A stretch of DNA of 64,000 bases from Blastocatellia bacterium (GTDB taxonomy: Bacteria > Acidobacteriota > Blastocatellia > Pyrinomonadales > Pyrinomonadaceae): the NCBI GenBank assembly GCA_003168335.1, contig PMSM01000006.1, forward strand, positions 186,001 through 250,000, read 5' to 3'. A model generated the notes under the pieces. It saw only the letters and a list, made by a program, of their open reading frames with translations. It had not been told where the DNA came from and made no database searches. Shown here piece by piece: positions 20,737 to 20,852 of this stretch. How positions within the stretch are numbered: the first letter of the stretch is position 1; each line of letters starts with the position of its first letter. The position numbers and the translations under genes were made by a program.

Positions 20737-20852
20737 TTGCCGATTGCCGATTGCCGATTGCCGATTTACCTTCCCTGATCATTTGATCCTGTTAGAATAT
20801 TTCCTCCAATGGACCGAACTGACCAATCGGCAATCGGCAATCAAAAATCGGC
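20737..20852. repeat. Paired heptamer leaders of divergent genes
   Basis: TTGCCGA occurs four times exactly in tandem at 20737-20764. Read on the minus strand this is AATCGGC repeated up to the SpoIIM-like start codon. At 20825-20852 the plus strand carries AATCGGC, AATCGGC, AATCAAA, AATCGGC, followed by one A and the ATG at 20854. The two divergent genes thus have near-identical leaders, placed as inverted repeats around a 60-bp spacer that must hold both promoters. Confidence 0.8.

What the first reader, a model, noticed from the sequence alone, without database searches (positions are those of the whole stretch)
20737..20852. Heptamer-repeat leaders abut the start codons of seven genes
7-bp-period repeats end within about 15 bp of the ATG at seven starts: moxR (16367-16401), SpoIIM-like and ftcD (20737-20852), DUF4112 (27134-27168), 32221 gene (32181-32208), lgt (36920-36954), yacG (54624-54658). 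The word changes by locus; the period does not. These starts lack a clear Shine-Dalgarno, while bactofilin, HU, YtxH-like and the secreted paralogs have one. Tandem heptamers (STRRs) are known in cyanobacteria, but this start-proximal placement is not something I recognise. They could be translation leaders, transcript-start signals or insertion sites chosen by a spreading element.
Basis: partly seen in the sequence, partly recalled or inferred. Interest (0 to 1): 0.75.

Follow-up and report, generated by a model that had tools for sequence, protein, structure and literature searches.

The report
Seven-letter hairpin repeats between genes
A soil bacterium and its relatives carry paired, mirror-image runs of a seven-letter DNA word in short gaps between genes, even inside the ribosomal-protein gene cluster; the word differs from place to place while the layout stays the same, and what spreads them and what they do is not known.

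Summary
The arrays are real and period 7 stands out: lag-7 runs in 41 of 767 intergenic gaps (shuffles 0.6). But 'start-codon leader' describes only half the object. Many arrays are one arm of an inverted pair: a roughly 30-nt heptad array, a spacer, then the same word inverted. In the window SpoIIM/ftcD, DUF4112 and the 32221 gene are paired; moxR, lgt and yacG are single. Pairs occupy 44 of 1104 own-genome gaps, 0 of 148 between two stop codons. The lag-7 excess beside stops is at least that beside starts; in codirectional gaps units hug the stop and are no nearer the start than chance. Array-abutted starts do lack Shine-Dalgarno (1 of 34 vs 370 of 1202). Relatives carry such units in the S10-spc ribosomal operon, mostly with different words at the same junction. 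Arms match no better within a unit than with same-word units elsewhere in the genome and G-U is not favoured: dispersed DNA elements rather than selected RNA hairpins. Closest published: Xanthomonas/Nostoc GGGAATC heptamers with inverted pairs. New variant of a known kind; function open.

The parts
20736..20766 (-). Heptad arm ((ATTGCCG)4 ATT; on the - strand AATCGGC) next to the SpoIIM-family start
   Evidence: perfect lag-7 run, score 24
20767..20823 (.). Spacer between the two inverted arms
   Evidence: by position; 20738-20766 / 20825-20853 found as one inverted repeat
20824..20853 (+). Inverted partner arm (AATCGGC with one irregular unit) next to the ftcD start
   Evidence: lag-7 run 20824-20842; inverted repeat 20825-20853
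19765..20730 (-). SpoIIM-family gene, start at 20730
   Evidence: Pfam SpoIIM 3e-36; ORF
20854..21765 (+). ftcD (formiminotransferase) gene; an in-frame ATG at 20809 would put the array inside the ORF, but FTCD_N begins at residue 2 of the 20854 start
   Evidence: Pfam FTCD_N 1e-67; ORF from 20809
27060..27085 (-). Stop-side heptad arm (CTTTGTA-like) upstream of the DUF4112 gene
   Evidence: lag-7 run, score 9
27139..27168 (+). Start-side inverted partner arm (AAGTACA-like) before the DUF4112 gene (27179-27718)
   Evidence: lag-7 run 27139-27165; inverted repeat 27067-27083 / 27146-27162
32112..32131 (-). Stop-side heptad arm (CTTTGAT-like)
   Evidence: lag-7 run 32112-32130 and inverted repeat
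32181..32207 (+). Start-side inverted partner arm (AAAGTAC/AAAGATC) before the 32221 gene (32221-32781); word close to that of the DUF4112 unit
   Evidence: lag-7 run; inverted repeat 32112-32131 / 32185-32204
36922..36953 (+). Single heptad array (ACTGCNN) filling most of the 39-nt gap before lgt (36959-37789); no inverted partner
   Evidence: lag-7 score 12.5, no inverted repeat in the gap
16367..16389 (+). Single, weak heptad array before moxR (16404-17357); no inverted partner
   Evidence: lag-7 score 8.5, P 0.002
54624..54658 (+). Weak pyrimidine-rich heptad array before yacG (start 54664); no inverted partner
   Evidence: lag-7 17/28, P 0.014; Pfam YacG

Best explanation
The arrays are arms of a dispersed, non-coding intergenic element. 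Each unit is two roughly 30-nt arrays of one degenerate heptamer (about four and a half copies), inverted around a spacer of 5-60 nt in 37 of 44 own-genome cases, seated between a gene end and the next start. Shown: period, inversion, same word in both arms, gap placement, absence between two stops in the sample, and presence, absence or a different word at orthologous junctions. Inferred: units of one word spread within a genome and are homogenised genome-wide, not arm against arm; slippage by one heptamer keeps the period while the word drifts; survivors are those in gene gaps, where they displace the usual leader and its Shine-Dalgarno. In mRNA they should fold into an intercistronic hairpin, but I find no sign that pairing itself is selected. 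What copies them is unknown; probably not the Y1 (RAYT-like) transposases, most of which have palindromes of their own here.
For: Inverted 7-periodic pairs in 33 of 709 gaps (discovery) and 11 of 395 (held-out contigs); 0 in three shuffled copies of the first set. Arms picked by period alone carry the same word inverted: >=6 of 7 positions in 54 of 65 r-protein units vs 8.5% of 3422 cross pairs, and in 22 of 31 own-genome units (convergent gaps and gaps >400 nt left out) vs 1 of 31 in direct orientation. Same junction in different genomes: 13.8% of 224 pairs share a word, background 8.2%; different junctions of one genome: 31% of 145 pairs. Gains at tight junctions: rplP|rpmC is -4 to 6 nt in 14 of 21 genomes but 80-85 nt with a unit in G003, G004 and G024; rplD|rplW is -8 to 5 nt in 14 of 20 but 57 and 88 nt with heptad arrays in G004 and G022. 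Within-unit arm match equals that to same-word units elsewhere in the genome (16.8 vs 16.5, n=52, P 0.55) and exceeds that to same-word units overall (16.2 vs 13.1, n=68, P 2e-5). No G-U excess over A-C mismatches (62 vs 81; own 21 vs 18). In G022 the spacers of five same-word units are alike (mean pair score 10.4, shuffled 5.1), as copying of whole units predicts.
Against: No target duplication, excision or strain polymorphism was looked at or seen, and no mobilising gene found. In the home genome six AATYGGM spacers are unrelated (4.9 vs 4.7 shuffled), odd for whole-unit copying. Occupancy is uneven (rplW|rplB 15 of 20, rpsQ|rplN 15 of 21, rpmC|rpsQ 0 of 9), and avoidance of convergent gaps is not expected of a neutral parasite. 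Single arrays exist (lgt, moxR, yacG). The inverted-pair test also rings at lag 9 (25 of 709), 8 and 10 (9 each) and 11 (6), so inversion is not unique to period 7. In G025 the density is low (7 of 202 gaps vs 4 at lag 8).
Confidence: 0.55

Rival explanations
1. Functional intercistronic RNA hairpin: the two arms pair in the mRNA, loop out the gap and bring stop and start codons together, or serve as RNase III or insulation sites; only the pairing matters, so the word is free to change.
For: In 79 r-protein units the unit begins a median 4 nt after the stop and ends 12 nt before the start; RNA fold z (mononucleotide shuffles) median -5.6, 75 of 79 below -2; the layout recurs at a junction while the word changes; none between two stops; starts without Shine-Dalgarno.
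Against: No G-U over A-C excess; arms of one unit pair no better than arms of different same-word units of that genome (AATYGGM family P 0.12); divergent gaps, which have no upstream stop, are occupied at a similar rate (7 of 156 vs 37 of 800 codirectional); single arrays exist. The strong fold follows from inversion alone.
Confidence: 0.2
2. Local replication product: slippage by 7 nt builds the array and strand switching at a hairpin copies it inverted; no mobility and no function.
For: Constant period with changing word; polymerase-footprint slippage is proposed for heptamers (as cited in PMC4692102 and PMC4679880); both arms share a word; unrelated spacers in the home genome.
Against: Same word at several sites of one genome (31% of pairs vs 8%); arms no more alike within a unit than between same-word units of that genome; related spacers in G022.
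Confidence: 0.13
3. Start-codon leaders that replace the Shine-Dalgarno, bound by ribosomal protein S1, a cold-shock or other RNA-binding protein.
For: Array-abutted starts: Shine-Dalgarno in 1 of 34 vs 370 of 1202; 3' arms A/C-rich in 28 of 32 word families; all 44 units lie in gaps with a start; the 7 divergent units lie 0-24 nt from a start.
Against: At least equal excess beside stop codons; start-side distance not closer than random in codirectional gaps; a Shine-Dalgarno is partly excluded simply because the array fills the place; the A/C-rich 3' arm is a property of a palindrome on both strands and was 3 vs 3 in G025; 32 word clusters argue against one binding protein.
Confidence: 0.12

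Closest known systems
GGGAATC / GGGGA(C/T)T heptameric repeats of Xanthomonas and Nostoc (PMC4692102; passages; sections 10, 13, 14, 16 read)
   Same: Dispersed intergenic heptamer arrays, mode of four units, inverted pairs (70 and 75 cases in the two Xanthomonas genomes), most often within 50 bp of an ORF end, G-rich word on the coding strand after stops and on the non-coding strand before starts, generally not associated with mobile elements, function unknown.
   Different: One G-rich word type there, many words per genome here (no GGGNATC pair in the 2.0-Mb sample); [quoted passage not shown] 16% of repeats lie between convergent ORFs there, 0 of 148 convergent gaps hold a pair here.
TAACTGA direct repeats of marine Beggiatoaceae (PMC4679880; abstract and passages; section 10)
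   Same: 7-nt arrays just upstream of start codons, few Shine-Dalgarno sequences there (about 10%), also before ribosomal-protein genes.
   Different: One word, 169 sets of direct repeats and a single indirect one, rather than inverted pairs.
P6b stem of the Nostoc trnL group I intron (PMC4476775 passages; PMC3488679 passages)
   Same: A hairpin stem built of degenerate 7-nt repeats, class I TDNGATT or class II NNTGAGT, replaced at a fixed site while the fold stays similar.
   Different: One site inside an intron RNA; here many intergenic sites and many words.
REP/RAYT and other repetitive extragenic palindromes (PMC3733652 passages)
   Same: Short dispersed hairpin-forming intergenic repeats, often in pairs.
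   Different: REPs are 20-40-bp palindromes, not heptad arrays; Y1 transposase genes here have other palindromes around them in 9 of 12 loci read.

Membership tests
Heptameric inverted-pair repeats (Xanthomonas/Nostoc type) | Tandem heptamers, intergenic, about four units | tested here: met
   41 of 767 gaps vs 3 coding runs; extended arm lengths have a median of about 30 nt
Heptameric inverted-pair repeats (Xanthomonas/Nostoc type) | Two arrays in inverted orientation close together | tested here: met
   33 of 709 and 11 of 395 gaps; 0 in three shuffles of the first set
Heptameric inverted-pair repeats (Xanthomonas/Nostoc type) | Word GGGNATC with G-quadruplex potential | tested here: not met
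   0 tandem GGGNATC or GGGANTN pairs in 2.0 Mb of the genome; 1 match in 268 loci, in relative G012
Heptameric inverted-pair repeats (Xanthomonas/Nostoc type) | Also occurs between convergent ORFs | tested here: not met
   0 of 148 own-genome gaps; 0 of 22 in G025
TAACTGA start-codon repeats (Beggiatoaceae) | Tandem TAACTGA | tested here: not met
   0 matches to two exact copies in 268 loci and in the 2.0-Mb sample with the window
REP / RAYT palindromes | Same repeat flanks a Y1 (RAYT) transposase gene | tested here: not met
   12 of 14 Y1 matches read with 1.5-kb flanks: 11 without a heptad array, one (L236) with a pair about 1 kb away beyond another ORF
REP / RAYT palindromes | GTAG or CGTC tag at the foot of the hairpin | not tested
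   no systematic scan was made
Nostoc trnL P6b heptad stem | Stem of 7-nt repeats with different repeat classes at a fixed site | tested here: met
   different words at the same r-protein junction across relatives
Nostoc trnL P6b heptad stem | Part of a group I intron | tested here: not met
   units lie between protein genes; Rfam at gathering thresholds finds only two Acido-Lenti-1 in the window

The most novel reading that the evidence does not exclude
A hairpin element that inherits only its layout: period 7, about four and a half copies, inverted symmetry and seat between genes are kept at a junction while the word itself is overwritten, in both arms, by a word current in that genome. That implies a copying process working on heptad units rather than on whole sequences (for example templated addition of heptamers at hairpins), possibly tied to gene starts, since paired units avoid gaps between two stops.
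Probability: 0.15. Interest if true: 0.85.

Novelty: new variant of a known kind. Interest (0 to 1): 0.55.

Why it matters
The excess of heptamers in bacterial intergenic DNA has been noted in print without an established explanation (PMC4692102, PMC4679880). Here a conserved operon gives many orthologous sites where the arrays come, go and differ in word between relatives, so copying, slippage and selected-hairpin models can be told apart. It also shows a bacterial family that tolerates long inverted repeats between genes of its ribosomal-protein operon, and starts that lack a Shine-Dalgarno right behind such an arm.

Tried and rejected
Chance or low complexity: rejected (shuffles and other lags). 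Promoter in a conserved spacer: not supported, since six home-genome spacers are unrelated and spacers can be as short as 5-14 nt; no promoter scan was run. REP/RAYT membership: not met. RNA-structure selection: G-U vs A-C negative in both sets, within-unit arm match not above same-genome same-word units. A/C-rich 3' arm as proof of transcriptional orientation: withdrawn, because a palindrome reads the same way on both strands; codirectional gaps without units show a weaker bias of the same sign (263 vs 180). A polarity of the AATYGGM unit (left arm starting ATTG or AATG in 18 of 21, last variable base of the right arm A in 16 of 21) was noticed, but the 21 units are not independent, so nothing is claimed. 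The strict AATYGGM pair pattern over the whole genome gave 11 overlapping hits at 5 places, 0 for the backward control. An attempt to reach cyanobacterial counterparts failed. Paper searches with nothing on point; one search gave palindrome papers, of which PMC12306157 (passages) mentions neither heptamers nor tandem repeats.

Limits: genes were called by my own hexamer caller, which misses short genes (yacG; a tRNA in L012) and may misplace starts. Gaps over 800 nt were dropped before pair counts (58 of 767, 50 of 445); r-protein gaps over 260 nt. The 249 junction cases include the home genome; r-protein regions were fetched for 20 of the 28 relatives with a match and for 20 genomes of the wider set.

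Full report
Observation. In the six gaps the best lag-7 run beats dinucleotide shuffles with P from 0.001 to 0.014, yacG being the weakest. In 1.24 Mb of the same genome (908 called genes, 767 gaps of 30 nt or more) lag-7 runs occur in 41 gaps, shuffles give 0.6 (sd 0.7), lags 14 and 21 give 38 and 19 as harmonics, and the next best lags are 9 (18) and 12 (12); only 3 lag-7 runs lie in coding DNA. A held-out 760 kb gives 15 of 445 gaps at lag 7 against 0-8 at the other lags from 4 to 14.

Many arrays are half of an object. In the SpoIIM/ftcD gap 20736-20766 reads (ATTGCCG)4ATT and 20824-20853 reads its inverse; the DUF4112 and 32221 gaps carry CTTTGTA-type arms at the stop side and AAGTACA-type arms at the start side; lgt, moxR and yacG have single arrays. 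Asking for an inverted repeat whose two arms are both 7-periodic gives 33 of 709 gaps (<=800 nt), 0 in three shuffled sets, and for comparison 25 at lag 9, 9 each at lags 8 and 10, 6 at lag 11, 2 at lag 6, 1 at lag 5. The lag 8-11 cases are other palindromic families (CGCAGATTA, CGCAAAGG, CACAAAGA, REP-like); of 37 listed, 10 lie in convergent gaps, where no heptad pair lies. Held-out contigs: 11 of 395 at lag 7, 9 at lag 9, at most 3 at the rest.

Placement. Around starts the lag-7 excess peaks at 16-30 nt (+0.022, z 5.2); after stops it is +0.023 and +0.030 in the first two 15-nt bins (z 5.6 and 7.0). In 37 codirectional gaps the unit begins a median 4 nt after the stop (11 expected from random placement, P 0.002) and ends 13 nt before the start (11 expected, P 0.94). 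So start-proximity in such gaps is confinement. The seven divergent units lie 0-24 nt from a start. None of 148 convergent gaps has a paired unit, with 5.8 expected after matching gap length (P 0.0013); G025 adds 0 of 22. A single array in a gap called convergent sits just upstream of a tRNA-Ala gene. Starts with an array ending within 15 nt have a Shine-Dalgarno 4-mer in 1 of 34 cases, other starts in 370 of 1202; windows further upstream show 9-11%. Part of that deficit is simply that the array fills the place.

Relatives. Heptad arrays occur inside the S10-spc ribosomal-protein operon: in the home genome pairs at rpsJ|rplC, rplW|rplB, rplB|rpsS and rpsQ|rplN and a single array at rplV|rpsC. 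I read that operon in the home genome and 20 relatives. Of 249 junction-by-genome cases 97 have a lag-7 run and 65 have two arms. Arms of one unit carry the same word inverted (>=6 of 7 positions) in 54 of 65; cross pairs do so in 8.5%, and the direct orientation never exceeds 5 of 7. Same junction in different genomes: 13.8% share a word, background 8.2%; different junctions of one genome: 31%. Two junctions are tight or overlapping in most genomes and carry a unit in a few: rplP|rpmC -4 to 6 nt in 14 of 21, rplD|rplW -8 to 5 nt in 14 of 20, which reads as gain. With a simple ORF mask, lag-7 pairs are in 13 of 42 gaps of 6 congeners, 42 of 75 gaps of 10 genomes of the family, 6 of 27 gaps of 4 genomes of the class, and 6 of 93 gaps of 20 other genomes of the phylum (5 of these in one genome). 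Among 80 named rplB loci (483 gaps, 19 lag-7 pairs) they are dense only in L068 (Acidobacteria gp4, 9 of 11 gaps; probably the same record as G024) and L069 (Pyrinomonadaceae, 7 of 12), with one each in L070, L126 and L132.

Mechanism. Three results speak against selection on the local hairpin: G-U mismatches are not commoner than A-C (62 vs 81 in 79 r-protein units; 21 vs 18 in 29 own units); arms chosen by period alone match their own partner no better than arms of same-word units elsewhere in that genome (16.8 vs 16.5, n=52, P 0.55), though better than same-word units overall (16.2 vs 13.1, n=68); and for the AATYGGM family in-register identity is nearly the same within and between units (24.9 vs 24.5 of 31, P 0.12, 21 units). 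What remains is homogenisation at genome level, that is, dispersal of word families, plus change of the word at constant period. Spacers give a split answer: in G022 five same-word units have related spacers (10.4 vs 5.1 shuffled), in the home genome six AATYGGM spacers do not (4.9 vs 4.7). In RNA the units should nonetheless fold (z median -5.6), and the absence from convergent gaps and the strong occupancy of some junctions keep a functional reading alive. Of 12 Y1-transposase loci read (of 14 matches), 9 have palindromes of their own and none is directly flanked by heptad arrays.

Known relatives. PMC4692102 (sections read) describes GGGAATC heptamers in Xanthomonas and Nostoc with a mode of four units, 70 and 75 inverted pairs in two Xanthomonas genomes, and the same strand rule at gene ends; no function was found. 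PMC4679880 describes TAACTGA arrays just upstream of start codons that mostly lack Shine-Dalgarno sequences in Beggiatoaceae. The P6b stem of the Nostoc trnL intron is a heptad hairpin whose repeat class is replaced (PMC4476775; PMC3488679). Neither the GGGNATC nor the TAACTGA word occurs as a tandem pair in the 2.0-Mb sample. The present case is the same kind of thing with two additions: many words per genome, and different words at orthologous junctions of a core operon. I saw no paper describing it for this bacterial group in the listings, which cover only the held open-access library.

Verdict. Real, more than chance, mis-framed as a start signal; a new variant of the heptameric inverted-pair repeats, most likely a dispersed DNA element (confidence 0.55), with an intercistronic hairpin function as the main rival.

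Noticed in passing
37889-37933 (-) and 38068-38113 (+): Two Acido-Lenti-1 RNA matches (RF01687) in inverted orientation about 135 nt apart, in the gap after lgt.
   Followed up: no
16244-16268 / 16293-16317; 54492-54516 / 54543-54567: Other long inverted repeats in the moxR and yacG gaps, outside the heptad arrays.
   Followed up: no
own genome sample, loci L005-L024 and L029-L066: Further inverted-pair families with period 8, 9 or 10 (CGCAAAGG, CGCAGATTA, CACAAAGA); 10 of 37 listed sit in convergent gaps, unlike the heptad pairs.
   Followed up: partly
L226-L237: Eleven Y1 (RAYT-like) transposase matches above cut-off, one with an internal stop; 9 of 12 loci read have long inverted repeats built of distinct palindromes.
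   Followed up: partly
L012:9287-9313: A strong single heptad array (GAAACTC) lies about 17 nt upstream of a tRNA-Ala gene at L012:9330-9406.
   Followed up: partly
tuf|rpsJ and rpmC|rpsQ junctions of G002, G003, G005, G006 (L164, L148, L151, L150): Hairpins without heptad period occupy the same kind of gap in some of these genomes.
   Followed up: no
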